From contig JAFDZV010000053.1 in assembly GCA_018266795.1 (NCBI GenBank), positions 1 to 46,306 of the forward strand: a stretch of 46,306 nt of DNA, written 5' to 3'. This stretch comes from Bacteroidota bacterium (GTDB lineage: Bacteria > Bacteroidota > Ignavibacteria > OLB7). The position numbers and the translations under genes are program-made. The notes below the pieces were generated by a model that made no database searches, had not been told where the DNA came from, and saw only the letters and a program-made list of their open reading frames with translations. Of this stretch, positions 3,024-27,579 are shown one piece after another; position 1 is the stretch's first letter, and every line of letters begins with the position of its first letter.

Positions 3024-3031
3024 TGATGCCA

Positions 3032-3664
3032 CTAAATGCTGGTATTGATCGATTGCGATCCGTCGCCACATCGGAATCTGGAATCAAATTTCACCCTCGC
3101 CATCTCGACCCATGCAGGATCAAAGTGTGGAGCACCCGTCAACGCTTCCTCGATTGCCGGACACACAACATTCCTCACCTGCGCGCAAAAGTCTCTGTAC
3201 TCCTTCGAGGGGCGCCTCATATTCGGGTCAGCGTGGTCGTGAAACTTGATTTGTTGGATTCTTCGAACTTCCTCGGGAAACGAATCGCCGTCGTGAATAA
3301 CGACAGGAATTACAAGGCGGATCGCGTCACCCTGGCCGCCGGCCCCCTTCATCAGCTCCTGCCGGCGCAGCATCAATTCAAGCTCGAGCTTACACCAGTC
3401 ACTGCGGAAGTAGTCCTTGCTGAGTACGGCAAGCATAACCTTGGATCGAGCCAGACTTGCCGCCAGATGCTCGGGCCAGTCCACGCCACCTTCGGCGCGC
3501 TCATAGTCAACATAGACGGCGCCGGACCCTATACATGGAGCGAGGTAGGTTGTCAGCATCGTGACAAACATCTGCATCCAACCATCCCACTTTTCGATCT
3601 TCCACTTGCGATAGCTGACGAATACCTCGTAATTATAGCCGGCGTTCGTATTCAATTCTGGCAT
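3032..3664 (-). CDS. Stand-alone TIR domain protein
   Basis: 210 aa from the ATG at 3664. The frame is open further upstream, but that extension is Arg/Ser-rich, overlaps the tubulin-like gene and looks non-coding. Residues 11-100 carry a TIR domain: NYEVFVSYRK as box 1, a VYVDYE strand, and then SKDYFRSDWCKLELELM, in which C91 and E94 match the conserved S-x-W-C-x-x-E motif; E94 is the candidate catalytic residue of TIR NADases. The remaining ~100 residues are unassigned (VIPVVIHDGDSFPEE resembles the final TIR strand and helix). It lies 232 bp after the tubulin-like gene and 8 bp before the NTPase-TPR-TIR gene, so co-transcription is likely. No clear Shine-Dalgarno sequence precedes the start. 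Family assignment is strong; the reaction (NAD+ cleavage) is inferred from the family. Confidence 0.88.
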   Translation of the reverse strand: MPELNTNAGYNYEVFVSYRKWKIEKWDGWMQMFVTMLTTYLAPCIGSGAVYVDYERAEGGVDWPEHLAASLARSKVMLAVLSKDYFRSDWCKLELELMLRRQELMKGAGGQGDAIRLVIPVVIHDGDSFPEEVRRIQQIKFHDHADPNMRRPSKEYRDFCAQVRNVVCPAIEEALTGAPHFDPAWVEMARVKFDSRFRCGDGSQSINTSI

Positions 3665-3896
3665 GGCTATTGAATGATCATGGGTTAATCGAGCCAATCG
3701 TCTGCAAGCCATTCTCACCCCGGCAATGCAGAAGTGAACGGCCGCCGGTTTCGGGTTGTCAGGCCCGCTTATGTCGTTCGGGCTACGATCGATCCGGATG
3801 ACAGGTTGGATACCATGTCCCGTAAACTGCGTACGGAACTGCAGCCATCGTACGAGATCGGATCGCCGAGAGGGTTCGGCACAGCAGCTATCGACC

Positions 3897-6869
3897 CTAT
3901 GAGGGGGCGGTTTCGTTGGCATCTCCCGGTGCATCGAACATCGCGTCGAGAATTTGCAGTTTTTTCTCCAGGATTTTTTCCAGAGCCGCGACATTCTCCC
4001 CTTTATTGCGGCGCCTGTTGATCTCGGCATTCGCGATCGCCTGCAGCGGCTCGGGCTGCGCACGATCCGCATTTTCACGAATGCCGAACAACGTGCCGAC
4101 GATGCGGTCAATAACCTTACTGTCGCTATCCTCGTTCACGATCTCCGCGCGATCCGCCGGTTGGTCCACCGGGTAGCTCCGATCGATCCCGCCCTTCCCC
4201 TTGATGACTATCACACGCCGGGGGTTGCGCCGATCACCGGTAAGCATGAAGATCTCCGGACACAACACTTCGGCGGCCAGCAGCCACTCGGAAAGGCAGT
4301 CGATCCGCCTGACGCGATCGTGCTGACGCTCCTTTTCCGCCATCCCGCGCTCCACATCATAGAAGTCCTCCTTCCTGTGTGTCGCATGCCCGAACTGTCC
4401 CGGCCGGCTGGCGAGAATGGCGGCAGCCTTGTTGGCCATCGCCAAGTCGTCGATCGCCAGGGCTCCCTGTTCGCGATAAACCACCACGAGATGATCGGCC
4501 AGCGGCGAGTGCACCACCCTGGCATCGCCGCGAATCAAACGCAATTCGGACATCCTGCGGACCAGCCGTTCCAGCAACGCCTCGTTGCCCCCGCCGATTG
4601 TCATCTCCACCATACGCGTCCCGCGTACCTCCTGTATCCGTCTCAGATCCAGATCCTCGTACGGAACGGCCCGACTGAAGAGGCTCCCCAACGCTTCATT
4701 GCCCAGGTCCACAGTGAGCTTGGTGGCATCGTCGGTGCGAAGTTCATTCAGAATGAGCGCCTGGAAGGCGGACTTCATGCCCGCAAATACGGCGCTCGAG
4801 TCATCCCGGAGAAATCGCAGCAACCCGATGTTGCTGGGCACGATGCGCGCCATGACTTCGGGCATTCTGCCGGTAACCATATTTTCAGCCGCAGCAATGT
4901 CTTTGTCGATCGATCCCGTCCGGAACACGAATCCAACGTTCATCCAGTTCGGAACCGTACGAAGCTCGTCGGCAAGCTCCAGAGCATCGTTCCGGACTTC
5001 CTGCACAACCTTGAGCACTTCGTCCAGTTCGCGCTTTCTCCGGTCGAGCGCCTGGATGAGTTCCTTGAGCGGTCCCCGCATGTAGAACAGCTTCAGCGAT
5101 TCCAGGCGATCCAGCAAATAGCATTCGAATCGCGCAATCGCCGCCGCCTTCTTCTGCTCGGTGGCACGGTCCTTCAGCCCTATCACTGCGGCCCAGACGT
5201 TGCTGTCGCCCCCGAGATTCTGGATACTCCGGAGCAACTGAATGTTCACCGGCGGCGGATCGACGGGGCAGGCGGCTATGCGCCCGCGGATATGATTCTT
5301 GAGCTGCTCGATATAGATCTGGGCGTCGGTAACCGATGTCAGGTCACCATTCGTGAGCCGCTGATCGACCGCCCCAAGAATGGTTCCGGCAAGTTCGCCC
5401 AGAAACACTTCCATCAAGTCCGCCGTGAACGGCGTGGCGAGATTGTTCGCGATGACGGTTGAATATTCGCCGTTCAATTCCAAGCGGCGCACAAGCGGCC
5501 GGCTTATCGTGGGGAATGTCTGCATCGCCGACCAGAGTTCGGCGAACGGGAGCGCCAGAAGCTGATTGCGTTGATCCTGGATCGCGTTCCGAATCTCATC
5601 GCGGATACTCCGCCCGCGATGGCTGTCCACGATGAGCTTGCCCTCGATGCGCGCGATGTTCGCATTCCAATCCTCTTCCGCATAGGCACTGATGGCATTT
5701 CGGTTCGCGCGCGCGGCATCGCCAATCCAACGCTCGCAGAGCTTTGCGGTCTGAAGGCAGGCAGCCGCAGCAGCGATCCGGGTCCGGGGATACAGAACAG
5801 CCGCCAATCCAAAGGAGGAAAGCTGTTGCACGTGGCCGCGCTCGTTGTTCTGGTTGAAGCGCGCGATCTGCCTGTAGTCCGTCCGTATTGCCTCCTTGCC
5901 GTCGTGCACCTCGCCGATGGCCTCCATGAACAGGCTCAAGGCAACCATGTTGTTCAACTGGTCCAGATCGACATAGCCGGTACCATCCACGAAGCGGATG
6001 GTACCGGACGCACTGGGCGACACGAGTTGAACGTAGTCGAACGGCGCATCGTCGATTCCGATTTCGCCAACTGGCGAGACGCGCGCACCCGGGACATCCT
6101 TCGTTTGCGAGTTCAATACGAAGTCCAGTTCGGTCAGCGCGGCCCAGGTATTGGCCACGTGATTGGCGCGCTCGTTCGTCTGCCGAGCGTTGTCCGGATT
6201 CATGCCGATGGCAGTCTGGGCATCCACGGTGCTGAAGATCCCGTAGATGCTTGGAACGCGCTGTACGGCACGCAGATTGTTGGCGATATCAACCGCCATG
6301 CCGCTGCACGTACCGCCGCAGAGTGAACCGACCAGATATACCATCGGCCGATCGTCCACCAGCGGATAGGGGGGCGCCATGTTGTGCTGTTCGTAGAATT
6401 TCAGCAGCAGATCGACAGTCGCATCACGATTGTCCTTGGCGATCACGGTATTCAATGCGCTCTCGATCGCCTGATCGATTTCGCGCCAGTTCATCCACAG
6501 GCACAACCGGCCGGCCGCACGTATGTTGGAGGCGCCGTTGACGAATTGATTCCCCTGAATGTTCAGCAGATCCTCCGGCAGCCAATCCGCGAGTGCCTGG
6601 TCATAATTCTGGTGTTGCCGATCGATGCGGTCACGTACCGCGTTCAAATTCCGGATCACCGCCGGCACGATCTCGATGCGTTCGGAAGGATGCAGCACGG
6701 GGAACCAGGAATCAGTGTCGATGATGCCTTCGCGCGTTTCAATCACGAGCTGCTTGAAAATCGGCAGTTGCGGAATTTCGTAAGTCTCGTATACGAACCG
6801 CCGGAAGGCCCTCAACATCTCAAGCCCCGTGGTTCCGATGCCGATAAATATTGTTGGACGGAGCGCCAT
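3897..6869 (-). CDS. Large FtsZ/tubulin-like GTPase (Tubulin_2 type)
   Basis: 990 aa, ATG at 6869 with GGGAG seven bases upstream. The N-terminus has a nucleotide-binding strand-loop, FIGIGTTGLEML (residues 8-19), and GSLCGGTCSGMAVD (181-194) matches the tubulin/FtsZ signature loop (GGGTGSG-like). This architecture, a tubulin-like GTPase core followed by a long C-terminal region of several hundred residues, is that of the bacterial 'tubulin-like domain-containing' family (Tubulin_2; the FtsZ-like families noted by Makarova and Koonin as linked to membrane proteins). Residues about 350-990 are mostly helical and have no domain I recognise. The flanking small membrane protein (15 bp upstream) and membrane-anchored protein fit a membrane-associated filament. 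Downstream are two TIR-bearing genes. Inferred role: polymerising sensor or scaffold controlling the TIR effectors; GTP binding is predicted from motifs only. Confidence 0.85.
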   Translation of the reverse strand: MALRPTIFIGIGTTGLEMLRAFRRFVYETYEIPQLPIFKQLVIETREGIIDTDSWFPVLHPSERIEIVPAVIRNLNAVRDRIDRQHQNYDQALADWLPEDLLNIQGNQFVNGASNIRAAGRLCLWMNWREIDQAIESALNTVIAKDNRDATVDLLLKFYEQHNMAPPYPLVDDRPMVYLVGSLCGGTCSGMAVDIANNLRAVQRVPSIYGIFSTVDAQTAIGMNPDNARQTNERANHVANTWAALTELDFVLNSQTKDVPGARVSPVGEIGIDDAPFDYVQLVSPSASGTIRFVDGTGYVDLDQLNNMVALSLFMEAIGEVHDGKEAIRTDYRQIARFNQNNERGHVQQLSSFGLAAVLYPRTRIAAAAACLQTAKLCERWIGDAARANRNAISAYAEEDWNANIARIEGKLIVDSHRGRSIRDEIRNAIQDQRNQLLALPFAELWSAMQTFPTISRPLVRRLELNGEYSTVIANNLATPFTADLMEVFLGELAGTILGAVDQRLTNGDLTSVTDAQIYIEQLKNHIRGRIAACPVDPPPVNIQLLRSIQNLGGDSNVWAAVIGLKDRATEQKKAAAIARFECYLLDRLESLKLFYMRGPLKELIQALDRRKRELDEVLKVVQEVRNDALELADELRTVPNWMNVGFVFRTGSIDKDIAAAENMVTGRMPEVMARIVPSNIGLLRFLRDDSSAVFAGMKSAFQALILNELRTDDATKLTVDLGNEALGSLFSRAVPYEDLDLRRIQEVRGTRMVEMTIGGGNEALLERLVRRMSELRLIRGDARVVHSPLADHLVVVYREQGALAIDDLAMANKAAAILASRPGQFGHATHRKEDFYDVERGMAEKERQHDRVRRIDCLSEWLLAAEVLCPEIFMLTGDRRNPRRVIVIKGKGGIDRSYPVDQPADRAEIVNEDSDSKVIDRIVGTLFGIRENADRAQPEPLQAIANAEINRRRNKGENVAALEKILEKKLQILDAMFDAPGDANETAPS

Positions 6870-9277: not shown

Positions 9278-11179
9278 CTATCCTTCACTTCCACGCCGAA
9301 ACCGCGTATCCAGGGCATCCGCCAGTTCCCCAACAGCCTCGTCGATCGCCTTCTCGAGAGTCTGCGCATCCCACCGCGAATCGAAGGTTCGGATGTAGCG
9401 ATCCTGATCCACACCGAATCGGCTTCTCCATGAAAGGGTATCATCATCCGGATGGCCCGTGTCAGCCATGCGGATGCTGGGAATTCCCTTGCCGCGCGCA
9501 AGTCCATATTCGAAGATCAGCCATGCCAGGCTCTCCCCGGCATTGCCGGCACGCGGAGCAACCATCTGCAGCATGGCGTCACATTCGGAGAGGGTATACA
9601 CCACTGTATCGGTTGCTCCCTCGATGTGCGTTCTCGGCAACACGATGTCGCTGAATCCATGCCGCTTTGCACATTCATCCACCATCTTCTTAACGTCCTC
9701 GAACCGCTCCCACGCGAAATGCGTCGAAAGGAACAGCTTCCACATTTTATGCTTCCCGGCATCGACATGCGATACAACTATCCGGGCATCGTCAAGGCGA
9801 AGCGCGAGCAAACTCTGCCTGATTCTCTCGGTTGTTCTCTTCCGCGCCTCCTCCGTATATGCCCCCTCAATTCTACCAACCATCTTGATCGTACCGATCT
9901 CGGTCTGTGGATGCGATTCACGCGTGAGATCCGTAAGTTGGATAAGATTGACATCATTCTCGCTCAGGACATCGCACACCTTCACCAGCAATCCCTTCGA
10001 GGAGCCTGGAATCCGGCCAATCGCGCCAACATCGGCGGGCGACGCACCATCGCCTCCCTTCGATGCCGAAGGTTCCATGCTGGTCCTCGCCAGATCCGCC
10101 TCGTACGAGATCCGCACATCGATGATGTTCTCGCCTACCCGGGCCTTCTCGAACAGCCGCAGGCGTACATAGTTCTCGCGCGTATCGAAGGAGGCAATGG
10201 CCACCGTGGGCGAACCAAATTCACTCAACCACTGTTTGTAGAGCCGGGGGTCATTCGGTTTCAGCTCGGAATGCCGGGCATCATAGGTAAACTGGTACGG
10301 GGCGCCGCAATTGATGCCGTACATCCAGGCGCGCATCAACTGCGGAAGCAAATGAACACGGACCGCCTGAAATCGTTGCGACTGATAGAGGAGGAAGAGC
10401 TTCTTGGGAACAATGGGCGGTTCCTGCTCATCGGCAATGACTTCCTTGAACGGAGATTTGTCAAGTCCCTTCTCGACATCCTCTTCAACTTTCCAAATGG
10501 GAGAGAGGCGTTCATGAGCCCGCTGGCTATCATGAAGAAATGGTTCGAATGGGCTCTTCTCCGGATCGGCCTCCTTCAGCAAATGCCCTTTCATTCTAAT
10601 AATGTGTCTCAAACGCTCCGCGCGTATCAGCATGCGGGCATAGATACTCCGTATTTGTTCACCCTGAAGCTCGGCGATAGACTTCGAATCGGGCGCATTT
10701 CCACCGCGCATGCTCGAACGGCCAGCCTCAAGCTTTTTTCGGATCAATTCGGTGTGGGGCCGATCCTTCAGCGATTCCGCGATCAGGTTCCAGGTGGCGT
10801 GATGGAATCCCGAGTAGGTACACTCGGCAAAGAGAATATTTGCCTGTACCTCCTGTAGAACAGCGGCCGCGTCTCGCATCGCGCCAATATGATCCAGCAA
10901 TTTCAATTCAACACGCAGCAGCGTAGCCCACGACTCGGGATGAATCGGCGAAATGAACAGATGCTGGCGCGACTCTCCATCAGGCGAACGATAGGTCAGC
11001 CTGTTTCTGCCCTTCCGCCGGCCTGTTTCTCTATGGCTGTTTGGCGCTGAATCGTCCGGCGGGTCGGCAACCAAGACCCCCCAGCATCGCGACTCATGAT
11101 AAATGCCGATGGTTTCCATCAATCCCGGTGGCGCCTTGATTCCGGTTTCCAATACGCGTAATTCTGCTCCATGAAACAT
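9278..11179 (-). CDS. Tandem ACT-like domains fused to a TIR-like effector domain
   Basis: 633 aa, ATG at 11179 with GGAG six bases upstream. Residues about 85-145 (RVELKLLDHIGAMRDAAAVL...ANILFAEC) and about 393-470 (GSSKGLLVKVCDVLSENDVN...) have the beta-alpha-beta pattern of ACT domains, small-molecule-binding regulatory modules best known for amino acids. A charged helical segment (150-260) and a mixed region (260-370) lie between them. The C-terminus (478-630) begins KMWKLFLSTHFAWERFEDV and contains LSECDAMLQMVAP and SLAWLIFEYGLARGKGIP. That layout, a Glu-containing helix then a short basic turn, is typical of TIR-like/nucleoside-deoxyribosyltransferase-fold effectors; E557 is the candidate catalytic residue. 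It lies 89 bp after the methyltransferase gene on the same strand. Inferred role: ligand-gated nucleotide hydrolase. I do not recognise a named family. Confidence 0.7.
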   Translation of the reverse strand: MFHGAELRVLETGIKAPPGLMETIGIYHESRCWGVLVADPPDDSAPNSHRETGRRKGRNRLTYRSPDGESRQHLFISPIHPESWATLLRVELKLLDHIGAMRDAAAVLQEVQANILFAECTYSGFHHATWNLIAESLKDRPHTELIRKKLEAGRSSMRGGNAPDSKSIAELQGEQIRSIYARMLIRAERLRHIIRMKGHLLKEADPEKSPFEPFLHDSQRAHERLSPIWKVEEDVEKGLDKSPFKEVIADEQEPPIVPKKLFLLYQSQRFQAVRVHLLPQLMRAWMYGINCGAPYQFTYDARHSELKPNDPRLYKQWLSEFGSPTVAIASFDTRENYVRLRLFEKARVGENIIDVRISYEADLARTSMEPSASKGGDGASPADVGAIGRIPGSSKGLLVKVCDVLSENDVNLIQLTDLTRESHPQTEIGTIKMVGRIEGAYTEEARKRTTERIRQSLLALRLDDARIVVSHVDAGKHKMWKLFLSTHFAWERFEDVKKMVDECAKRHGFSDIVLPRTHIEGATDTVVYTLSECDAMLQMVAPRAGNAGESLAWLIFEYGLARGKGIPSIRMADTGHPDDDTLSWRSRFGVDQDRYIRTFDSRWDAQTLEKAIDEAVGELADALDTRFRRGSEG

Positions 11180-11268
11180 ACCTGTCTCCTGAAAATAATA
11201 GTGATGAATTTCTGGTGAACGGTAGTCCGACTATCGCCCATGATGCCAACCGCGCGGCGCCAATCGGC

Positions 11269-12603
11269 TCAGGCGTTCCGCCGGTCCTGTACCCGTTGGG
11301 CAATCAGATAGATAACGAACTGGTCGTGCACGTACTTTCCCGGGCCGATCTCCGACTCATGTGCGGCTTTGAACTCGGATCCAATCCGACGCCAGACATC
11401 GTGCCGATGCTTTTCATCGCAATCAGCAAGTGGAGCCATGAGGATCTGGTCACCGTAACTGATGACGTCATTTACATAACCCTCTGTTGAGGAGTAGGTC
11501 ACGGGTTCATAGCGAACAATTGCTTCTACCACCCGCAACCCACTCACTTGAGCGCACCGCACCACGTTGCTCAGGCTCTGCATTCCGATTGGATTTCGCG
11601 TGTATGCGGACCAGACGCCACGCACGCATTCGTTCATGGCCGCATCCGCCTCAACTACTCCAGAGAGAACTTTATGGTAAGCTTCGAAGAAAATGCGTCC
11701 CGTTCCGCTCGACGCAATCGTCATGGCAAGGAGGCCCTGATCGCGCAGCATGTTCCGGCAATTTCTCATCGCTCGCGCAATCGCATCAGGAGTGAAGAGC
11801 CAGTGCAGCACGTCGTTGGCAATAACCAGGTCAACCCACGAAGTCCCCGTCTTCTTCTGCAAGTATCCTGGTTCGATGTTGCGGAGATCTGCACGAAAAA
11901 TGTCGGTGTAGGCTCGCGAATCGTTATTCCGTCTGGCATATGCAACCGTGCGCGGAGAGTAATCGAATCCGGCCCGGATCCTCGCCTTCTGCAGTGGTTC
12001 GTATGATCTGGGGCAATGACTATCGGCCTTGTATTTGATAATGCTGCCAACAAGCCCGCTGCCGCATCCCGCGTCCACCCACCCGTGCAACGTGGCGATA
12101 TCGTTCTCACAGTAATGCTCGCACAGCATATCGAGGAGCCGCGTCGCGTTGTTTCGCTGCATCGAGTTGCCGAACTTCAGCGATGCATCGTATTGCTCGA
12201 TGCCGACATCGAAATTGTAGCGGGCGAAGTCGACAACATCGGATGCCGAATTGATGGCGGGTTTCTGGATTGGATCGGGAAGCCGCTCTGCACGGTATCC
12301 CGTCCGTTTCGAATCGCGTTCACGGATCAGCCTCAGGTGATCGATGAGTACCGATGGTTGCTGGTCCGAAGGCACCGTACGGAGATCGATCGCCTGAGTC
12401 GGATTCAACCGCGCGATCAGCTCGCCGGAATGCCAGACGATCACGAGAGCGGCCGGGTCTCGCTGGCTCACGATAGTCTCCTGGATCCAGTTCAGCTCCG
12501 TGTAGCATGCGCCGCGACGCTCGCGCAGTTGCTCCTCGAAGGACTCCGTATACAATACCACGAGCCAATCATCCTGGGCTGCACGATCGGTCACCCAGTC
12601 CAT
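11269..12603 (-). CDS. TIR (C-terminal part) - SAM methyltransferase, split from its N-terminus by a frameshift
   Basis: The frame shown opens at ATG 12603 (444 aa), but its first ~65 residues are the back half of a TIR domain: DDWLVVLYTESFEEQL, then RRGACYTELNWIQ, where C33 and E36 match C-x-x-E of TIR enzymes. Reading the same frame upstream of the ATG gives ARTDKDQPPGENW, a good second TIR box. The front half (MCTAFISYCRSD) is in another frame at the end of the upstream gene. A -1 shift between 12678 and 12591 would join them. The rest is a class I methyltransferase: VDAGCGSG (176-183, motif I), FDYS with an acidic residue (D214), and IANDVLHWL (261-269). Substrate unknown. It may be expressed from the internal ATG, by frameshifting, or be damaged. 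Confidence 0.75.
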   Translation of the reverse strand: MDWVTDRAAQDDWLVVLYTESFEEQLRERRGACYTELNWIQETIVSQRDPAALVIVWHSGELIARLNPTQAIDLRTVPSDQQPSVLIDHLRLIRERDSKRTGYRAERLPDPIQKPAINSASDVVDFARYNFDVGIEQYDASLKFGNSMQRNNATRLLDMLCEHYCENDIATLHGWVDAGCGSGLVGSIIKYKADSHCPRSYEPLQKARIRAGFDYSPRTVAYARRNNDSRAYTDIFRADLRNIEPGYLQKKTGTSWVDLVIANDVLHWLFTPDAIARAMRNCRNMLRDQGLLAMTIASSGTGRIFFEAYHKVLSGVVEADAAMNECVRGVWSAYTRNPIGMQSLSNVVRCAQVSGLRVVEAIVRYEPVTYSSTEGYVNDVISYGDQILMAPLADCDEKHRHDVWRRIGSEFKAAHESEIGPGKYVHDQFVIYLIAQRVQDRRNA

Positions 12604-13565
12604 CCAGTTTTCGCCGGGAGGCTGATCCTTGTCCGTCCGCGCTGAAACCTCAACCGCGTGCAGCGAGGAAGCAGAAGATTATTCAGCAGTGCCGCATCGC
12701 TACGGCAATACGAGATAAAGGCCGTACACATATCAGCTTGAAAATGATGCGACGTATCGGTGCCGGCTGGTCCGCCACCGATATGTGGTGTGACTTTGGG
12801 GACGGATGGCACGCTCTCATTCTCCGGAACAAACGGCCGCCGGGCGTATCCCACCCGCTCCTCATAGCTGTCCAGACGATTGCGAACATGTTGAAGCTCG
12901 GGGCGGTTACCGGCAACAAATATCCATTGTACGGAGTTCGGTCCGCCAACCTCCGCCTCCTTCCGGCTGGGGGAATTCTCGGCCCCCGGTTCCATGAAAA
13001 TCGAGGGTATCGATTCCAGATCCCCTTCCAGTTCGGCCGGCCCGATCGCGTGACTTCGTATGACAGTAGTAAGCCGTTGCGCGAACGCATCGATGAACTC
13101 CTGATACGCACCTTCGAAGCGCTGGTTCTTGATCAGGCGCCACGCTCCATACTTTGCGTACGGCTCACCATAGTCCTCGTGCAGATACTGAATGTCGGAC
13201 ACGGCCCGCGGAAGCGGCTGCGGCAGCATCTCCGGCGCAATCCAGAGCACGGGATGAATCAGCGGCGGCAATTGGCCCGTGTCCGCCGATGCGGCACGCA
13301 GCCTTCGGTCGAACACATGCCATTGCTTGCCGCAGTACCCGCTGGCGAAATAGGCCGGCGTGAGAATGGGAACAAACGCACCGGCCGTCTGCAAGGCTTC
13401 GACCAGCTCTGGACGCCAGCGCGCGCCTCCCTCCATGGATGTCTTGTCGCGGTAGCCATCAGCGAGCCCGAACAGCCTCAGGCTATTCGACAAGTCCTTG
13501 TAAAAGCGGTCCAGGTATGGATCGTCGTTGGATGATGCATAGCTGACGAAGAATGAGTACTTCAT
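12591..13565 (-). CDS. FxsC-like TIR protein, C-terminus replaced by the start of a second TIR
   Basis: Start ATG at 13565 (MKYSFFVSYASSNDD), 324 aa. Residues 1-~150 are a TIR-like domain close to FxsC of the actinobacterial FxSxx-COOH system, and IFVAGNRPELQHVRNRL begins the FxsC C-terminal domain. It is a near copy of the protein encoded at 17006-18253, but the similarity stops abruptly after PENES; a Pro/Gly-rich linker follows and then MCTAFISYCRSDAALLNN, the first strand and helix of a second TIR, before the frame terminates. The catalytic-position residue of the first TIR is Gln81 (CGKQW) where the paralogue has Glu (CGKEW), so this TIR may be catalytically dead. The stop overlaps the methyltransferase ATG by 13 bp. 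Probably the N-terminal part of a TIR-linker-TIR-methyltransferase fusion. Confidence 0.75.
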   Translation of the reverse strand: MKYSFFVSYASSNDDPYLDRFYKDLSNSLRLFGLADGYRDKTSMEGGARWRPELVEALQTAGAFVPILTPAYFASGYCGKQWHVFDRRLRAASADTGQLPPLIHPVLWIAPEMLPQPLPRAVSDIQYLHEDYGEPYAKYGAWRLIKNQRFEGAYQEFIDAFAQRLTTVIRSHAIGPAELEGDLESIPSIFMEPGAENSPSRKEAEVGGPNSVQWIFVAGNRPELQHVRNRLDSYEERVGYARRPFVPENESVPSVPKVTPHIGGGPAGTDTSHHFQADMCTAFISYCRSDAALLNNLLLPRCTRLRFQRGRTRISLPAKTGWTG

Positions 13566-13880
13566 TATCGGCCTCATTGTATGGAGATATGCAGATAGCT
13601 GCACCGATGAAATACATTCGGCGCATGGCGCAATCGTAACTGGAGGAATAACCGCGATGCGATGGGGTGTTCGCAATCAGGGGACTGGTTGCAGCGGCAC
13701 GGAAGTACAGGGAGCTGTCGTGCCGTATCACAAACAGACCAAAGCTACGTGTTTTTTCATTACGTGTAACGCTCGGGCAGGGCAAGTTCGACTCCTTAAA
13801 ACACGGTCAATATCTCCCGAAGCAGCGTGGGATATATCATGAGTAGATGGAGGCGATATACAGATTATACGGCACGCTCC
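13566..13880 (-). promoter_or_regulatory. Duplicated leader/promoter of FxsC-like gene, copy 1
   Basis: This stretch aligns with 18254-18590 over its whole length with few gaps, including an exactly shared block around GGGGTGTTCGCAATCAGG and another around ATCACAAACAGACCAAAG. Both copies abut an FxsC-like ATG. Retention of non-coding similarity beside diverging coding sequence suggests a shared promoter or leader, or simply a recent duplication. The strand-specific core promoter was not resolved. Confidence 0.6.
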
Positions 13881-13904
13881 ATGGGCACAGGCGCCGTAGC
13901 ATGC

Positions 13905-13993
13905 CGCTCCGAAACCGGGGAACGGTACGCTCAATGGAGCTGAATACCGTGTGACCGGGACGTTCGGCTACAGACGGGTGCGCCTGCGGCGGC
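13905..13993. repeat. Dispersed intergenic repeat, copy 1
   Basis: It shares with 14207-14275 and 18643-18735 the order: CCGGGAACGG-like start, TGCGCTC, an ATGGAGCTGAA(T/C) block, GTGACCGGGACGTT, and (in copies 1 and 3) CTACAGAC followed by CACCTGCGG or CGCCTGCGG. It has no coding potential and an unknown role. Confidence 0.55.
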
Positions 13994-14206
13994 CATGCAC
14001 GTTGCGATGAACGCATGCTACAGACGGGTGCCGCACATGGCAGTAGCATAAACGTGACAGACTCGTGTTGCAGACAGGCATCGCATATGATGGTCCCATG
14101 CATGCGATGACAACGAATCTCGACACCGATCTTCAGCGCCGGAAACGCGCACCGTCTGTAGCAACCAGCCAGCGCACGCCAACCTCAAGCCCAGGCAGGG
14201 GCGCAC

Positions 14207-14275
14207 CGCTCCGGAACCGGGAACGGTGCGCTCCGATGGAGCTGAATTCCTTGTGACCGGGACGTTGGGCTTGAG
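14207..14275. repeat. Dispersed intergenic repeat, copy 2
   Basis: Closest to copy 1: both contain GGAGCTGAAT and TTGTGACCGGGACGTT-like or GTGTGACCGGGACGTT-like blocks. It lies 125 bp beyond the stop of the KGGTGR NTPase gene in the direction of transcription. Confidence 0.55.
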
Positions 14276-14399
14276 GGCCACCAATGCATGGTTATATGTC
14301 AGACGCAGATAGAAACGGCGACGAATTTCGATTGGTGAGTCTCGAATCAACACCTCGGGACTTCTCACGCATCCATCGTATCAGCCAAATGTAGCAGCT

Positions 14400-17009
14400 T
14401 CAATACGCGGCATCCCGATGTGTGATCACCCTTCCACTCGAGGAAGGGGTGTGGCGATTCGGCACCTTGTTCTGTCTGGGAATCTTGGAAATCTGCGGAA
14501 GCCACACATCAATCAAACCGGGATTTACCTGACCCAAATACTCGAACGGGGTCGTCAACATCGTTCCCGGGACCTTAAGTACTCTGTTGAATTGCCAGCA
14601 TATCCATTTTGCCTGCGGCAGATCCTCGGGATGGTAACAACGCACAACGCTGTCTCCCATCTCCACCGAGCGATCGGACAACGAAGTATTTCCTTCCGGT
14701 ACAATGCCCTGGATGCTCCGTTTCCGTACCTGGCCCGAATCCCGTTCCAGAACAACCACTTGCATGCGAGGCAGAATTGCCCGCACACGATTCAACATCT
14801 CCGCGACGTTTGTACCGAACGTGCGAACCTTCACCACCGTTGGAAGAAATCTGAAGGCCTGGAATGGTTGGAGCTGTTTACCTTGCGCCGAATCGAGGCC
14901 GCATAGCAGCCTCTGCGCACGCAACGTAACAATCGTATCCACGGCACTAGACTGCGGCCGCTGACGCAGATCCTCTAGCTCGACTCTGGCGTTGAGCGCA
15001 GAGTCCAACCAGATCTGGCACATTGCATGATAGAGATGGGCCACCCGGCTGCCGGTATCCAGCCGGATCGCAGTAAGCAGATCCAGATTTGCGGATTGCA
15101 GAAGCCGGATGCTGTCATCCTTCATGTACAGAGTGAATCTGGCGATTCCGCGGCCGGCATAGGCACGGGCGGAGTCCGGCATCAGTCTGACTGCCTCGGT
15201 ATACACGACCAGCGCGCTATCGAACATTCCCAAGCCGGCATATGCCCGGCCGCGTAGCAGAAATGCGATTCCAGAATCGGACTCGTTGCGCAGGATCGTG
15301 TCCGAAACCATCAGCGCATCCCGGTATCGCCCATCGTCAATAGCCAAACTTCCTGCTGAGAGCAGAGCGTTCCAGCTACGTACGGTGCGTTCCCCGATCA
15401 GATACACCACCAACACAACCATCACCATGAACAGAACAGTCGCAGCACTCGCGATGGCGATTCTCAATCGCCGCCCATGGGCTTTAACTCGGGCGCGCGA
15501 TATGCATCGCTCGATAAACTGATTTTCCCGGAGAGTCAGATTGTTGCGCAGGCCCTCCATCCTTCCCCCGATCAATCGAATCAGATTGCGGCCGAATAAT
15601 ATCTCATCACCCTCGCCTCCCTCAATCCAGCGACGATGGAGCAGGCGGATCGGCTCCAACAATTCCAGGAACGCGCGATCCTGGGCAATCCATTCCCCCA
15701 GCAGTGCCCAGTCACGCAGAATGCGCTCATCGGTAAATTCAGCCACATCCTGGCCAAGCACACGGTTTGTCTCGAGAGCAATTGCTCCCGAGGCGGAGAG
15801 ATCCGCAAGAACCCGGGCTTCATTCTCCCCAAGCTCGCTCAGCATTATCTGCCCAAGTGTGTCAGCCCCACCCACCACCGCACTCCCCACACGCACCAAC
15901 CGAACGCAGATCTGCCGTGCCACATGCTTGTCCTGCTCCGGGAGGGCGCGATAGATCCGATCCAATTGTACAATTGTGATGGGAAGGGTGGCAACCGGGG
16001 TTGGGGTACCGGAATACAGGGCGCGGACACGGCTACGTACGTCTGTATCCGGAAGAGCAGGATCCGGCAACGAACTGCCCGCGAGGACACTCGCACATTC
16101 AAACATCGATGCAAATACTGAGCGTCCATCGCCCGGAAGGTCCACGAACGCTGCAAGCACTTCCTCGTAGGCGTAGAACGGTACATAGGGAACCGCAACA
16201 TTCCGCCAATATTGCTGGCGCGACAGCGAGCCGATATGCTGCTTCAGTGGGAATTGCCCAAACTGATCCATCGCGTAGGCTATTCTGGAAACCAGCTTGT
16301 CGTTCTCTGCATTTTCGAGCCGCATCGGCACAGGGTAGATGGCTATCGGCCGGTTTATTCGTTGGCGAAAGACGTCCGCCACAACAGCGGCCGTTCCGTC
16401 AACACCTTGATTGTTTACCGTGAAGCATGCCACCAATGCATCCGGCATTTGCACCGTACAGATACCTGCCGTATCGCTTACACCGGTGCGGCTGTCTATG
16501 AGCACGAAGTCGTACTCTGCGCGCATCTGTTCGCACACCTTCTCAAGAAAGGCTCCTCCCCCCAGTCGGTCATAGAAGTTTCGCCAGTCGAACGAATTGA
16601 CATTCGTGGAATACATCGGGCTCTGCTTACCAGCGGGAAAGATGTCGAGCGTCGCACCTTCGGGAAAATCCCACTCCAACGAAACCACGTACCGATACAT
16701 ATCGAAGTGCTGACTGACCCAGTCAACTTCATGTTTGCTGCCGGTCGCGGGAGTCAATGCTTCGATCGCGAAATCGAGCATGCAATCGATAACTCCTTCC
16801 GAAGCGCATAGATCCGGGTCAACGAGAAACGGACGGAAGTAGCGATGCAGACCGGGCGCCTCAAGGTCCCAATCCACCATGAGGACGCGTCTGCCGCTGC
16901 ATGCCAGAATCCAGGCAACGTTGGCGAGCGCCATGGAACGCCCTGTTCCCCCCTTGTATGAGTAGAAGGTGATGATCTTGCCCGGCGCTCGTGTGCGAGG
17001 TTCGTTCAT
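14400..17009 (-). CDS. KGGTGR P-loop NTPase with membrane helix and TPRs (FxsT-like)
   Basis: 869 aa. Residues 19-25 are KGGTGRS, the deviant Walker A, with DWDLEAPG at 46-53; the N-terminus is similar to the other NTPase of this window and to FxSxx-COOH-system TPR proteins. A helical middle part (about 350-510) ending in DRAFLELLEPIRLLHRRW resembles the helical end of nSTAND1-type proteins. One transmembrane helix follows at about 517-539 (IASAATVLFMVMVVLVVYLI), then TPR-like repeats (RALMVSDTIL, AYAGLGMFDSALVVYTEA) and a ~150-residue C-terminal domain I do not recognise. The start overlaps the stop of the FxsC-like gene by ATGA, a strong sign of translational coupling and direct partnership. 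Inferred role: membrane-tethered NTP-driven regulator of the TIR partner. No FxSxx peptide gene or radical SAM gene accompanies it. Confidence 0.85.
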   Translation of the reverse strand: MNEPRTRAPGKIITFYSYKGGTGRSMALANVAWILACSGRRVLMVDWDLEAPGLHRYFRPFLVDPDLCASEGVIDCMLDFAIEALTPATGSKHEVDWVSQHFDMYRYVVSLEWDFPEGATLDIFPAGKQSPMYSTNVNSFDWRNFYDRLGGGAFLEKVCEQMRAEYDFVLIDSRTGVSDTAGICTVQMPDALVACFTVNNQGVDGTAAVVADVFRQRINRPIAIYPVPMRLENAENDKLVSRIAYAMDQFGQFPLKQHIGSLSRQQYWRNVAVPYVPFYAYEEVLAAFVDLPGDGRSVFASMFECASVLAGSSLPDPALPDTDVRSRVRALYSGTPTPVATLPITIVQLDRIYRALPEQDKHVARQICVRLVRVGSAVVGGADTLGQIMLSELGENEARVLADLSASGAIALETNRVLGQDVAEFTDERILRDWALLGEWIAQDRAFLELLEPIRLLHRRWIEGGEGDEILFGRNLIRLIGGRMEGLRNNLTLRENQFIERCISRARVKAHGRRLRIAIASAATVLFMVMVVLVVYLIGERTVRSWNALLSAGSLAIDDGRYRDALMVSDTILRNESDSGIAFLLRGRAYAGLGMFDSALVVYTEAVRLMPDSARAYAGRGIARFTLYMKDDSIRLLQSANLDLLTAIRLDTGSRVAHLYHAMCQIWLDSALNARVELEDLRQRPQSSAVDTIVTLRAQRLLCGLDSAQGKQLQPFQAFRFLPTVVKVRTFGTNVAEMLNRVRAILPRMQVVVLERDSGQVRKRSIQGIVPEGNTSLSDRSVEMGDSVVRCYHPEDLPQAKWICWQFNRVLKVPGTMLTTPFEYLGQVNPGLIDVWLPQISKIPRQNKVPNRHTPSSSGRVITHRDAAY

Positions 17010-18253
17010 GTGCCGCCTCCAACACCGGATATGGTGGGTTTTGCGATGACGATGCCGCTTTCAACGCGCTTCTTCACCTCCGAAATATTTATGATCCGCA
17101 TCCTTGCCTTGGCAATGGCAATGCCCAACTCGCGCTGAAAATCCTGAACGGACGCAATCGCGTCGTGAATACAGTTTGGGTCCTTGGGGTTGAATTTGTT
17201 GAGGAAGGTATAACGCAGGCAATCCTCGAGAGAATCCCTGGCTGTGTTGGTCTCCTCATCCAGCATATTCCATGGAATCACTACAACGCTGTTCCAGAAA
17301 TCACGATCGTCGAATCGCCGCATGGAGGCATGATATGGCTCGAGAAGTAATGTCCATGTGTCGACGACAATCGCCACCACCTTGTTTATCCCGGCGGCTT
17401 CCTCGAGAACGGCAATCAGGTGCTCTTCCGAATCCACGGCGGTGATGTCTGAGAGCATTCCCGCACCTACACACACACCTTGTGCAAGGATGCCCACCAT
17501 GCTCTCATTCTCCGGAAGAAACGGCCGCCAGGCGTATCCCCCTTGCTCCTCATAGCTGTCCAGACGATTGCGAACATGTTGAAGTTCGGGGCGGCTTCCG
17601 GCAACAAATATCAATTGTACTGAATTCGGCCCCCCAACGTCCGCCTCCTTCCGGCAGGGGGAATTCTCGGCCCCCGGTTCCATGAAAATCGAGGGTATCG
17701 ATTCCAGTTCTCCATCCAGCTGAACCGGCCCGATCGCGTGACTTCGTATGACAGTAGTAAGCCGTTGCGCGAACGCATCGATGAACTCCTGATACGCACC
17801 TTCGAAGCGCTGGTTCTTGACCAAGCTTCGCACTCCATACCGTGCATACGGCTCGCCGTAGTCTTCGTGCAGATACTGAATGTCGGACACGGTCCGTGGA
17901 AGCGGCTGCGGCAGCATCCCCGGCGCAATCCAGAGCACAGGATGAATCAGCGGCGGCAATTGGTCCGCGTCCGCCGATGCGGCACGCAACCTCCGGTCAA
18001 ACACGTACCATTCCTTGCCGCAGTATCCGCTGGTGAAATACGCCGGCGTGAGAATGGGAACAAACGCACCGGCCGTCTGCAAGGCTTCGACCAGCTCTGG
18101 ACGCCAGCGGGTCCCCCCTTCCATCGAAACCTTGTCGCGGTAGCCGTCGGAGAGCCCGAACAGTCTCAGGCTATCCGATACGTCCTTGTAGAAGCGGTCC
18201 AGATATGGATCGTCGTTGGATGATGCATAACTGAAGAAGAATGAGTACTTCAT
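17006..18253 (-). CDS. FxsC-like TIR protein, intact paralogue
   Basis: 415 aa from the ATG at 18253 (MKYSFFFSYASSNDD); an upstream in-frame ATG at 18304 lies in the duplicated leader and is less likely. Residues 1-~150 form the TIR-like domain: DDPYLDRFYKD after box 1, and SGYCGKEWYVF, where C78-x-x-E81 matches the TIR catalytic motif. From about 215 the FxsC C-terminal domain begins (LIFVAGSRPELQHVRN) and continues to VVAIVVDTWTLLL and FWNSVVVIPWN, typical of FxsC. The stop overlaps the NTPase start by 4 bp. Compared with the copy at 12591-13565, this one keeps the full C-terminus and the catalytic Glu. Family identification is strong; biochemical activity is inferred. Confidence 0.85.
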   Translation of the reverse strand: MKYSFFFSYASSNDDPYLDRFYKDVSDSLRLFGLSDGYRDKVSMEGGTRWRPELVEALQTAGAFVPILTPAYFTSGYCGKEWYVFDRRLRAASADADQLPPLIHPVLWIAPGMLPQPLPRTVSDIQYLHEDYGEPYARYGVRSLVKNQRFEGAYQEFIDAFAQRLTTVIRSHAIGPVQLDGELESIPSIFMEPGAENSPCRKEADVGGPNSVQLIFVAGSRPELQHVRNRLDSYEEQGGYAWRPFLPENESMVGILAQGVCVGAGMLSDITAVDSEEHLIAVLEEAAGINKVVAIVVDTWTLLLEPYHASMRRFDDRDFWNSVVVIPWNMLDEETNTARDSLEDCLRYTFLNKFNPKDPNCIHDAIASVQDFQRELGIAIAKARMRIINISEVKKRVESGIVIAKPTISGVGGGT

Positions 18254-18804
18254 TGTCAGCCTCACTATATGGAAATATGCCGATGGCACACCGATGAAAT
18301 ACATTCGGCGCAGGGTGCGATCGTAATTGGGGAATGAAAACGATGCGATGGGGTGTTCGCAATCAGGGGGCCGGTTGCAGCGGCACGGAAGTACAGGGAG
18401 CGGTCGTGGCGTGCCGTATCACAAACAGACCAAAGGTACGTGTTTTTCTATTACGTGATAACGCCTGGGGAGTGCCTTCAATTTCGATTCGTTGGAACAC
18501 GTTCACTATCTCCGGAAGCAATGCGATGCGTATCATTAGTAGATAGTTGTGATATACATGCTGTACGGTACGCACCTCCGGGATACGCTCCGTTGCACGG
18601 ACCAATTGTAGGAACCAGTCAACGCCCGCGCGAATCACAAGCCCCTCCGATCCGAATTCTGGGAACGGTGCGCTCCGATGAGCTGAACACCGTATGGTGG
18701 CACTGTTCAACTACAGACAGGAGGCACCTGCGGTAGCCGGGTGTCCCGATCGATTCCTTCTGGATACGGGCACCGCGCCGCCTCGCTGTCAGAGCCTCAC
18801 CACG
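18254..18804. other. 551-bp non-coding region upstream of the intact FxsC-like gene
   Basis: About 18254-18590 is the second copy of the duplicated leader described at 13566-13880, and 18643-18735 is copy 3 of the dispersed repeat. The rest, to the stop of the type III Res gene at 18805, shows no gene. The FxsC-like/NTPase operon promoter should be here; I could not fix its -35/-10 boxes. Confidence 0.55.
18643..18735. repeat. Dispersed intergenic repeat, copy 3
   Basis: It contains GGGAACGGTGCGCTCCGATG, shared almost exactly with copy 2, and CTACAGACAGGAGGCACCTG, which parallels copy 1. It ends about 70 bp from the Res stop codon. Confidence 0.5.
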
Positions 18805-21564
18805 CTACGGCATATCGCCCCGTACCACCTCTCCAAACTCCTTGAACCCGCGTCCGTCGAAATCGGTCTGGTTCACGCGGTGATACCGCCAGGCGGCACC
18901 GCTCTGCTCGGTGATGCGCTCGCACCACTCCTGCATCGCCGCGTCCTTCCGCTCCGTTCCCTCCCAGACACGTCCCTTGGTTTCGATAATCCAGTGCGTC
19001 TCGCCTCCGCCGGCATTTCGTTGCACAACAACCCAGTCCGGATGATAGAGGCCGATGGCGCCGCTCTCCTTCAGATAGTCCACCCGGAACTGCGCGCCGG
19101 AATCCCCCTGCTCCGTGGTGCCCAGCGCGGCAAAGCGGAGCACATCGGGCGCGGCATCCAGCAGCATCGCGAAGCGCCGCTCGAAGCTGTTGTACGTGGC
19201 CACGTAGTTGAACACAGTCTTCGCGGCCACCAGCGGCGGCAGATCGCGCCGCCATGCGAATGGCTTCGTCTCCGAGAGCCGGAAGTTCTCGTGCGCGAAT
19301 TCGATCGGGCGGCGGCTGATAGTCAGCTCCGCGACGATGCGCGCCAGATAGGCCGCTATCCCCTCCTGAATGTCCAGGCGCGCCAGATGGGAACGAATGG
19401 CCTCGCTCTCCAGATCAACCTCGCGCCCGAAGCAGCGGGCGGTTACGTACCGCCGCACCACCGGATAGAGTTCAGCGAACCGGTTCGGGAGCTTTGCCCG
19501 CTCGATGGTCTTCATCGTAATCGAACCCAGCAGTTCCTGCGGGGTAGCGGTGCGGCCGGCGGCAACCTCCGTGCTGTGCACCTCCGTCTCCGTGGTGGCG
19601 AACTCCAGGCGGAGCCGCACGCGAAACACCTCGCCCAGCTCCTCCTGCTCGTAGATCGGATCCAGCATATCCGGATTCAACTCCGCCAGCCTGCGAACAT
19701 CGTGCACCAGGCGCGGCTTGGTGATCGGAATACCGATATCGTATGCCAGGCGCTCCTGCACCGGCGCAATGATCACCGGCTTCGGCGGGTCCGTTCGCGT
19801 GCTCCCGGTCCCCACTCCTTCGGCTTCGAGCTGCTCGCGCAGCACCTTCAGCAGGTTGCGCGTCCCCAGCACCTCCAGCGTCTGCGTGCGGTCCGGGCTG
19901 ATCCCCTGCATCAGGCGCAGGCCGCGCCCTATCACCTGCTCCGGAAGGATCTCCGCCTTCGCAGTGAACGGACGCAGGCCAAGCACCACGGTCACGTTGC
20001 GCACATCCCATCCTTCGCGCAGCATCATCACGCTCACGATCGCCTTGATGCCGTTGGTATCGATATCCCGTGCGGCCTCGCGCGCCTTCTCCAGATCCGC
20101 CTTGGTGATCTCCCCCTCCGCATCGGTATGGATCACCAGCACCTCCCGCTCCTTGAACCCGAACTCCCTCGTACGCCACAGGCACTCCCCCAGCGCATCG
20201 GCATAGGCATTCTTCTCCGTCATCAGAAACAACACCGGCTTCGTCCCCAGCGTGCGATAGGCGGCCCAATGTTCCTTCCAGCGCTCCACCGCCGCACGCA
20301 GCCAGTAGCCATACTTCTCGGCCACGTTGTCGCGCGTAACGCCATCCGGGTCCTCCTTCGGCTGCCGGGGATCGTCCTCCTTGGTGACGATCAACGGCGC
20401 CTTCACGATACGGTCCTCCACCGCCTGCGCGAGCGGGTAGTCGCAGACCGTCCATGGGAAATACATGCCGTTCTGGTCCTTGGGTGTAGCGGAGAAGTCC
20501 AGCCAGAGCGCCAGCCCTGCCGGCAGCGCGCGGTGAGCGGCCAGCAGAGAACGGCTCCAGGCCAGATCCGGATCGTGCACGTGGTGCGCCTCATCGTTCA
20601 GCACCACCAGATCCGGCAGCGACTTCACGCGGTCCAGCATGGAGCGGCCGGCCGCGAGATCCTTGGGAGGCACCGCTCCCAGAAGCAGATCCACCGGATT
20701 CAGCGGCGCGGCGGCCGCACCGCGCGACTCGTACAACTGGTGGATGTTCGTCAGGAAGAGATTGCCGGAGGCATCCGGCTCCGTGGCCTCGCCGCGCAGA
20801 ATGGTCTTCAGCGCAAACATGGAGCGCCACTCCGGCGGGATCAGCGGCAGCTCGTGGAAGATCCGGTTGGCGGCGAAATCCTTCTCCAGCCGCTGGTACA
20901 CGATCACGTTCGGCGCCACGATCAGGAAGTTCGCGGAGAGGTCGCACCCGGGGGTCATGCGCCGGTTGAAATAGCACCAGACCACGGTCATCGCCATCAC
21001 CCAGGTCTTGCCGGAGCCGGTCGCCATCTTGAACGCGTAGCGGCGCAGATTCTCCGGCGGCAGCTCCTGCAGGCCCGGCGCGTTCAACTCCGGCACGTAG
21101 CGGCGGATCTGCCGCCGCCCCTCCATCGTGGTCTGGAAGACGATGTTATCCTGGAAGAGATCGGTCCGGTACACCTCCGCGTAGGAACGGATCAGCTCCA
21201 CCGCGTCGCGCCGGCCCGCCACCTCCACCAGCCACGCAAGCGTCTCGATCGCCTCCCGCTGGCAGAAGTGGAAGCGGAATGGGGAGCCGAATCCCGGCAC
21301 CTCGTGATCCTCATCGAACCAGTGCGCGAAGAGCCGCCGCGTAACCTCGGTGGCGCCCGGATATCCCGCATCGCGCCAGGCATCAACCGCCGCGCGGATC
21401 CTGGGAACCAGCAGCAGCCTGCTCGCGCGGCGGCCGGAGGTATCCTCCCGCCAGCCGGTGGGGTCCGCCGGATCCTTCACCAGGAAGGAGGAGGGGCGTT
21501 CCCACGGGCGGCGGCCCGGGATCTCCGGCAGCGGGTTGTTGTAGTTGATCAGGGCTCTGGCCAT
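18805..21564 (-). CDS. res: Type III restriction enzyme, helicase/nuclease subunit
   Basis: 919 aa. This is the superfamily 2 translocase plus nuclease of a type III restriction-modification system. Motifs seen: ATGSGKT (181-187, Walker A), NDEAHH (323-328, DEAH box), DFSATP (356-361), and the helicase second half with VIGRGLRLM. Near the C-terminus HPDWVVV (841-847) and IETKG (860-864) give a PD-(D/E)XK nuclease site with D843, E861 and K863. The length is usual for Res. It follows the mod gene (gap 206 bp) on the same strand; the operator-like palindromes in that gap suggest separate control of res expression. In known systems Res needs Mod for target recognition and cuts 25-27 bp from one of two inversely oriented sites. 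Confidence 0.93.
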   Translation of the reverse strand: MARALINYNNPLPEIPGRRPWERPSSFLVKDPADPTGWREDTSGRRASRLLLVPRIRAAVDAWRDAGYPGATEVTRRLFAHWFDEDHEVPGFGSPFRFHFCQREAIETLAWLVEVAGRRDAVELIRSYAEVYRTDLFQDNIVFQTTMEGRRQIRRYVPELNAPGLQELPPENLRRYAFKMATGSGKTWVMAMTVVWCYFNRRMTPGCDLSANFLIVAPNVIVYQRLEKDFAANRIFHELPLIPPEWRSMFALKTILRGEATEPDASGNLFLTNIHQLYESRGAAAAPLNPVDLLLGAVPPKDLAAGRSMLDRVKSLPDLVVLNDEAHHVHDPDLAWSRSLLAAHRALPAGLALWLDFSATPKDQNGMYFPWTVCDYPLAQAVEDRIVKAPLIVTKEDDPRQPKEDPDGVTRDNVAEKYGYWLRAAVERWKEHWAAYRTLGTKPVLFLMTEKNAYADALGECLWRTREFGFKEREVLVIHTDAEGEITKADLEKAREAARDIDTNGIKAIVSVMMLREGWDVRNVTVVLGLRPFTAKAEILPEQVIGRGLRLMQGISPDRTQTLEVLGTRNLLKVLREQLEAEGVGTGSTRTDPPKPVIIAPVQERLAYDIGIPITKPRLVHDVRRLAELNPDMLDPIYEQEELGEVFRVRLRLEFATTETEVHSTEVAAGRTATPQELLGSITMKTIERAKLPNRFAELYPVVRRYVTARCFGREVDLESEAIRSHLARLDIQEGIAAYLARIVAELTISRRPIEFAHENFRLSETKPFAWRRDLPPLVAAKTVFNYVATYNSFERRFAMLLDAAPDVLRFAALGTTEQGDSGAQFRVDYLKESGAIGLYHPDWVVVQRNAGGGETHWIIETKGRVWEGTERKDAAMQEWCERITEQSGAAWRYHRVNQTDFDGRGFKEFGEVVRGDMP

Positions 21565-25964: not shown

Positions 25965-27377
25965 ATGAAACCATTCCTATGTGGGCTTGCGCTCCTTGCC
26001 CTTTCCTGTACGGTCGGGCTTGCACAGGCGGAGAACGACGTGAACGTGTTGAGCTACTACGCCGTCGGTAATTCGCTGGATGGGCAACCGATGATCGACA
26101 AGGTGAACGTGCTCCGCTTCTACCCGGTGTTCGCGTTTCGCAACAGCGTGACAAGCGTGAAGGTGACGGTCTACTACGGCCCGCACGTCTACACGCGGCT
26201 GGCCGACAGCATGGAGGGGAAGCAGTACTGGCAGGTGCTGCTGCCGAAGTTCGAACTTGGTGAGGCGATTCAGCGGCTTGAGGTGGAGGTGGGGTTTCGT
26301 GTGAATGGGATTTATTCGGCCCAGTATGCCAGCGCCGTCGCCGAGGTGGAGAATGCAGGCAGAACCTACGCCGCCGACGCGACAAATCTCAACAGTCAAT
26401 TGCTCGCGTCCGTATCGTCGTTCACCTCGATAGTGTCCCCCAGGCACCCGATAACTCCGTCCGAGGCATCACGGGAAAGCTCGGACCCTGAATTTCAGGC
26501 ACGGCAACAACAGTTGATTGCATTACCGAACCGCCTAAAACAGAGCGCGGCGTTACTCAATCAGTACAGCAGCAGCTACGCACAACACGTTGAGGAGTCG
26601 CCAGCGGTTGTCCACGCAAACGGCAAGCTCCTCGAACACCAGAACCTGCTGCTGAATGAATTACGCGGTGGGGTGGACACCGTGGTAACGACTGCGAAGA
26701 CCGTGGCGCCAGGCACCCCGGAGGAAAAGATTGCCACGCACATCGATGATCTTGCATCCAAAGCATCGATTTCGTTCGCCAAACTTCAAACTGCCGAACT
26801 GAAACGAAAAGCACTGGTGGATTCATTGCGCGACGCACAACGCACGCGGCTGGAGCATGAGTTGATCGACTCGAACTATACAGGGTTGAGCGTTCGTCGC
26901 TCGGATATCTCCGTCAACGATTCCCTGACAGCGGCCCGCATCCTCTACCGCAACTACAAGACGTCACTCCGGCGCATCCCGGCATTGGACCCGGCGGAGC
27001 AGCTCGGCATCTTCCGCGCGCGTTTCGTGCCCTTCGCGGTGGTGGGGGGGCATCTGTATACTCCGTTCGACTCCAACGCCAAGATTGTGTTCGAGGTGGG
27101 CCTGACGTTCGGCAACGCCGTGGTTGCCGGCGATGACTTCGTGGTGCCAACCTTCGCCCCGGAGCGCCTGGGCGTGGCGTTCGTAATCACCAACGATCTG
27201 TTCTCGGACTCCGCAAGGATCCGCGCGCTTGCGCTGACGTACGATTTCAACTCCTACGGCAGCCTGGGAGTGGGCGCAAACTTCGCCGGCGGCACCGTGA
27301 AGCCCTACGTCAGTTTCGGCATCAACAAGAAGGCGTTCGAGGATGTGGTTGGGGAGTTGGGAAAGCTCTTCAATTGA
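25965..27377 (+). CDS. Exported protein with coiled-coil middle and beta-rich C-terminus
   Basis: 470 aa. MKPFLCGLALLALSCTVGLAQA is a signal peptide. The N-terminal region (30-125) is beta-rich (VKVTVYYGPHVYTRL, IQRLEVEVGFRVNG). Residues 135-325 are helical with long Gln/Ser/Leu stretches that could form coiled coils. The last 120 residues are strand-like (VPFAVVGGHLYTPF, KIVFEVGLTFGN, LGVAFVITND, VKPYVSFGINKK), again suggestive of an outer-membrane domain. It lies 12 bp downstream of the previous exported protein and is followed by a hairpin at 27385. Unknown family. Together the pair indicates an envelope-located function separate from the restriction genes. Confidence 0.7.
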   Translation: MKPFLCGLALLALSCTVGLAQAENDVNVLSYYAVGNSLDGQPMIDKVNVLRFYPVFAFRNSVTSVKVTVYYGPHVYTRLADSMEGKQYWQVLLPKFELGEAIQRLEVEVGFRVNGIYSAQYASAVAEVENAGRTYAADATNLNSQLLASVSSFTSIVSPRHPITPSEASRESSDPEFQARQQQLIALPNRLKQSAALLNQYSSSYAQHVEESPAVVHANGKLLEHQNLLLNELRGGVDTVVTTAKTVAPGTPEEKIATHIDDLASKASISFAKLQTAELKRKALVDSLRDAQRTRLEHELIDSNYTGLSVRRSDISVNDSLTAARILYRNYKTSLRRIPALDPAEQLGIFRARFVPFAVVGGHLYTPFDSNAKIVFEVGLTFGNAVVAGDDFVVPTFAPERLGVAFVITNDLFSDSARIRALALTYDFNSYGSLGVGANFAGGTVKPYVSFGINKKAFEDVVGELGKLFN

Positions 27378-27384
27378 GAAACGC

Positions 27385-27419
27385 ATCCCGCCCAGCGGCG
27401 AGAAACTGCCGGGCGGGAT
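27385..27419 (+). terminator. GC-rich hairpin after the exported-protein operon
   Basis: ATCCCGCCC (27385-27393) pairs perfectly with GGGCGGGAT (27411-27419), and an inner CGGC/GCCG pair can extend the structure. It begins 7 bp after the stop codon. No T-run follows, so strength is uncertain. Confidence 0.6.
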
Positions 27420-27579
27420 TGTGCTCGGGCCTGCCCCATCGCCACCCCCTTGCGCCGCTCGCCGGGGCGCCTCTATCTTGCAACACACCCCGGCGTTCTT
27501 CTCCCCTGTATTCACATTCACAACGGTATCGTCATGCCGGCACGCATTGCATTCGCCGGCGATTCCAGAGGGAGCATTC

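What the first reader, a model, noticed from the sequence alone, without database searches (positions are those of the whole stretch)
11269..12740. TIR-methyltransferase fusion split by a -1 frameshift
The first TIR strand and helix (MCTAFISYCRSD) end the upstream frame; the rest of the same TIR (PPGENW, C-x-x-E) continues in the -1 frame and leads into a class I methyltransferase. The shift window is 12678-12591. A TIR-SAM methyltransferase protein would be an unusual enzyme pair. The break may be a mutation, an error, or programmed frameshifting, although I see no X-XXY-YYZ slippery site.
Basis: seen in the sequence. Interest (0 to 1): 0.65.

Follow-up and report, generated by a model that had tools for sequence, protein, structure and literature searches.

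The report
Frame-broken TIR–methyltransferase gene
A bacterial immune-type gene that joins a TIR domain to a methyltransferase is present here with its reading frame broken inside the TIR domain; most likely it is a recently damaged (or mis-assembled) gene behind a truncated copy of a neighbouring TIR gene, and nothing points to programmed frameshifting.

Summary
On the minus strand one TIR_2 domain is split between two frames: βA/αA (MCTAFISYCRSDAALLNNLL) from ATG 12731 in the upstream frame, and the rest, then a class I methyltransferase, in the -1 frame to 11269. Joining the halves raises the TIR_2 score from 22.7 to 31.7–36.4 bits (cut-off 28); shuffled N-halves give 21.9–22.6. In relatives FxsC is followed by a KGGVGR ATPase (76 of 80 loci); here the copy is followed by the TIR–methyltransferase. 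No slippery heptamer lies in the shift window. No homologue of the methyltransferase ORF was found in the sampled genomes, plasmids, phages or viral contigs, so the homologue test could not be made. Best reading: an orphan TIR–methyltransferase gene in a defence-rich island, broken by a frameshifting indel that is either a recent mutation or an assembly error. The window holds a second split gene, a helicase broken at a G7 run. The pairing is unusual; the break is probably ordinary.

The parts
12810..13565 (-). truncated duplicate of the FxsC-like TIR gene (N-terminal TIR plus part of the second half); reads on in frame past 12810
   Evidence: 87% nt identity of 12810-13901 to 17498-18597; 88% protein identity; NF040588 FxsC_Nterm E=3.9e-35
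12732..12809 (-). junction between the FxsC remnant and the second TIR; low coding score; weak similarity to the 3' end of intact FxsC
   Evidence: local score 19.5 against a maximum of 17 in 300 shuffles
12672..12731 (-). N-terminal piece of the second TIR (strand A and helix A: MCTAFISYCRSDAALLNNLL), upstream frame
   Evidence: raises the TIR_2 score by about 10 bits when joined
12591..12678 (-). overlap of the two open frames in which the frame change must lie; the TIR fit places it near 12660-12680; no slippery heptamer
12262..12678 (-). C-terminal part of the second TIR in the -1 frame, with PPGENW and C-x-x-E (catalytic Glu candidate)
   Evidence: PF13676 22.7 bits alone; residues read directly
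11269..12603 (-). ORF of 444 aa from internal ATG: TIR remainder plus class I SAM methyltransferase (DAGCGSG motif)
   Evidence: PF08242 2.8e-10, PF08241 2.2e-7, BioC-like TIGR02072 7.2e-8 below its cut-off
17006..18253 (-). intact FxsC-like TIR gene, source of or sister to the truncated copy
14400..17009 (-). KGGVGR-motif ATPase, overlapping partner of the intact FxsC
   Evidence: NF047398 150 bits over cut-off; the same gene order in Rhizobium L042 and in 76 of 80 Streptomyces loci

Best explanation
The locus carries a gene for a two-domain protein, an N-terminal TIR domain (NAD-cleaving or scaffold type) followed by a class I SAM-dependent methyltransferase, whose frame has been broken inside TIR helix A by a frameshifting indel. 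The break is a recent mutation or an assembly error. Shown: one TIR domain lies in two frames, the methyltransferase frame is open and coding-like, and the gene sits behind a truncated duplicate of FxsC in a defence-rich island. Inferred: in the intact form the TIR would consume NAD+ or oligomerise on sensing infection, and the methyltransferase would modify a small molecule or protein. If the sequence is right, the present product is a methyltransferase with a beheaded, inactive TIR, or nothing.
For: Domain-join test with shuffled controls. Frame switch in codon score at the same place. The methyltransferase frame stays open for 469 codons with codon usage like its neighbours, so decay is recent or absent. 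No slippery site. Neighbouring truncation of the FxsC duplicate shows rearrangement at this spot. A second gene of the window, a UvrD/PDDEXK helicase, is split at a G7 run, so indels, real or technical, occur in this contig.
Against: No intact TIR-methyltransferase homologue was found anywhere searched, so the ancestral fusion is inferred from the TIR halves alone. The break does not lie in a homopolymer, which argues somewhat against a technical error. The open, coding-like methyltransferase frame fits continued use of that part.
Confidence: 0.72

Rival explanations
1. Programmed -1 frameshifting makes a full TIR-methyltransferase (or FxsC-TIR-TIR-methyltransferase) as a minor product.
For: The frames overlap by about 88 nt and the downstream frame is well kept.
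Against: No X-XXY-YYZ heptamer; the best in-frame heptamers allow little re-pairing. No Rfam element in 11000-19000. No homologue conserves the arrangement.
Confidence: 0.05
2. The methyltransferase is a separate working gene translated from ATG 12603 or later, and the TIR halves are an unused relic.
For: 444-aa ORF with neighbour-like codon usage; intact DAGCGSG motif.
Against: No ribosome-binding site seen before ATG 12603, though the organism's use of such sites is unknown. A start at 12603 cuts the TIR in its middle, so it is not an original start.
Confidence: 0.13
3. Two proteins work as a pair: the FxsC remnant with a short tail, and the methyltransferase with partial TIR, a split system after rearrangement.
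For: FxsC copies show dN 0.058-0.066 against dS 0.19-0.25, so the kept part was under constraint for at least some of the time.
Against: The truncated copy lacks its conserved second half, and its last 25 or so residues, after the shift point, are out-of-frame TIR sequence.
Confidence: 0.07

Closest known systems
TIR_2 (PF13676) bacterial TIR domain proteins
   Same: joined halves score over the curated cut-off; C-x-x-E kept
   Different: broken across two frames; followed by a methyltransferase rather than the usual STAND, WD40 or STING partners
Class I SAM methyltransferases of the Methyltransf_12/11, BioC-like kind
   Same: domain match over gathering score and glycine-rich motif
   Different: under the BioC equivalog cut-off; no homologue found for the full ORF
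FxsC TIR-like protein with KGGVGR ATPase
   Same: the gene upstream is a truncated duplicate of an FxsC-like gene whose intact copy precedes a KGGVGR ATPase
   Different: slightly under NCBI's FxsC cut-off (121-123 against 130 bits); the duplicate lost its second half and its ATPase partner

Membership tests
TIR domain (PF13676) | profile score over the curated cut-off in one continuous frame | tested here: not met
   no continuous frame; each half is below cut-off
TIR domain (PF13676) | profile score over cut-off once the two frames are read together | tested here: met
   31.7-36.4 bits for joins within helix A against cut-off 28; shuffled controls 21.9-22.6
TIR NADase | NAD+ cleavage by the catalytic Glu | not testable with these tools
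   Glu of C-x-x-E is present in the -1 frame; activity needs an assay
Class I SAM methyltransferase | Rossmann methyltransferase profile and glycine-rich motif I | tested here: met
   PF08242 41.2 bits (cut-off 30), DAGCGSG
FxsC (NF040588) | score over equivalog cut-off 130 bits | tested here: not met
   121-123 bits for both copies: FxsC-like
Programmed -1 frameshift gene | slippery heptamer X-XXY-YYZ in the overlap | tested here: not met
   every in-frame heptamer checked
Programmed -1 frameshift gene | arrangement conserved in homologues | tested here: inconclusive
   no homologue found

The most novel reading that the evidence does not exclude
A TIR-methyltransferase fusion, otherwise unseen in the collections searched, in which signalling through NAD and SAM-dependent modification are coupled in one immune protein, made here at a low level by frameshifting.
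Probability: 0.05. Interest if true: 0.7.

Novelty: new variant of a known kind. Interest (0 to 1): 0.27.

Why it matters
If intact relatives exist, a TIR joined to a small-molecule or protein methyltransferase would be a new effector pairing for bacterial immunity. As it stands, the case mainly warns that defence islands contain broken and duplicated modules that can look like novel fusions.

Tried and rejected
Homologues of the methyltransferase ORF: 99 relatives, 395 of the phylum, 391 of the class, 15 Streptomyces genomes and 296 from the phylum of one of them, plasmids and phages by tblastn, viral contigs and one scan of genome contigs: only generic methyltransferases at 23-33% identity or chance matches. 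Two were opened and rejected: L124 overlies a purB-like gene and L014 a TonB-receptor-like protein. Single-sequence fold of the ORF failed (mean pLDDT 36.7), so no fold search was made. No PDB relative of the ORF or of the joined TIR. Gene neighbourhoods of two distant relatives of the next gene downstream (L128, L129) show no TIR-methyltransferase. Papers on TIR-methyltransferase fusions: none found in the held library (the three papers listed were not opened). The eLife 2020 survey of NTP-dependent conflict systems (PMC7159879) discusses TIR effectors but has no mention of methyltransferases.

Full report
The finding was checked on the minus strand of the window, which lies at G000:C48 of a 5.97-Mb, 71-contig genome. 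The upstream frame reads MCTAFISYCRSDAALLNNLLLPRC... from ATG 12731 to TGA 12593-12591; the -1 frame is open from 12678 through ATG 12603 to 11269.

Are the halves one domain? Against Pfam the N half gives no TIR hit and the C half gives 22.7 bits, below the cut-off of 28. Joining them within helix A gives 31.7-36.4 bits; a later join (about 12645) gives 27.7; four shuffled N halves give 21.9-22.6. Codon score changes from the upstream to the -1 frame at about 12670. This is strong evidence that one TIR domain is split, with the frame change in or just after helix A.

What follows the TIR is a class I methyltransferase (PF08242 E=2.8e-10; BioC-like below the equivalog cut-off). It keeps DAGCGSG. 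The ORF has GC3 0.66 and a codon score of 0.125 per codon, at the low end of its neighbours (0.13-0.42), with no further stop.

The 361-aa ORF that carries the first TIR piece is mostly an FxsC-like TIR protein (NF040588 E=3.9e-35, 121 bits against a cut-off of 130). Positions 12810-13901 are 87% identical to 17498-18597, which holds an intact FxsC-like gene (17006-18253) overlapping a KGGVGR ATPase (14400-17009). The similarity stops at 12810, the copy lacks the conserved second half of FxsC, and the 78-nt junction to ATG 12731 scores as non-coding, with a faint trace of the FxsC 3' end. The kept part shows dN 0.058-0.066 against dS 0.19-0.25. FxsC followed by a KGGVGR ATPase is a conserved pair: 76 of 80 Streptomyces loci and a Rhizobium plasmid. 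In the duplicate, the TIR-methyltransferase stands where the ATPase would be.

Is the shift programmed? Every in-frame heptamer from 12729 to 12600 was checked; none is X-XXY-YYZ, and no Rfam element lies nearby. The decisive test, homologues, could not be made: no relative of the ORF was found in 99 relatives, 395 genomes of the phylum, 391 of the class, 296 of another phylum, plasmids, phages or viral contigs, and the one scan of genome contigs with this ORF found none. Those searches reach only fairly close relatives, so absence is not proof of uniqueness.

Is the break real? The reads are not available. The break is not at a homopolymer, but a second gene of the window, a UvrD-type helicase with a PDDEXK nuclease domain, is split within UvrD_C at a G7 run, 32390-32396. 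Indels, real or technical, therefore occur in this contig. Recent mutation and assembly error remain open.

Conclusion: a TIR-methyltransferase gene broken in its TIR, sitting behind a truncated FxsC duplicate in a region with several TIR proteins (two TIR-WD40 proteins, a TIR-STING) and restriction genes. The pairing TIR plus methyltransferase is unusual and was not found in the literature searched. The break itself is most likely ordinary.

Noticed in passing
30854-33713 (-), break at 32390-32396: A UvrD-type helicase with C-terminal PDDEXK nuclease is split into two ORFs within UvrD_C at a run of seven G: phase variation, mutation or assembly error.
   Followed up: partly
12810-13901 and 17498-18597: 87% identical duplication of an FxsC-like TIR gene with its leader; one copy is truncated.
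   Followed up: yes
38125-39937 (+): TIR-STING (PF10137 + PF20300) followed by an 8xMP membrane protein; whether a CD-NTase is nearby was not checked.
   Followed up: no
27343-30747 and 34703-37903 (+): Two paralogous TIR-WD40 proteins flank the helicase and a RadC gene; a similar TIR-propeller gene lies near FxsC in Rhizobium beringeri plasmid L042.
   Followed up: partly
9278-11179 (-): 633-aa protein with weak ACT match; stand-alone full-length relatives at about 21% identity in two genomes of the phylum (L128, L129).
   Followed up: partly
225-6869 (-): Another cluster: KGGVGR ATPase with TPRs and what reads like a C-terminal TIR, a TIR protein and a tubulin-like (PF13809) protein.
   Followed up: no
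L043:1599-6173: In a Streptomyces plasmid the FxsC homologue is the C-terminal part of a 1,524-codon CDS.
   Followed up: no
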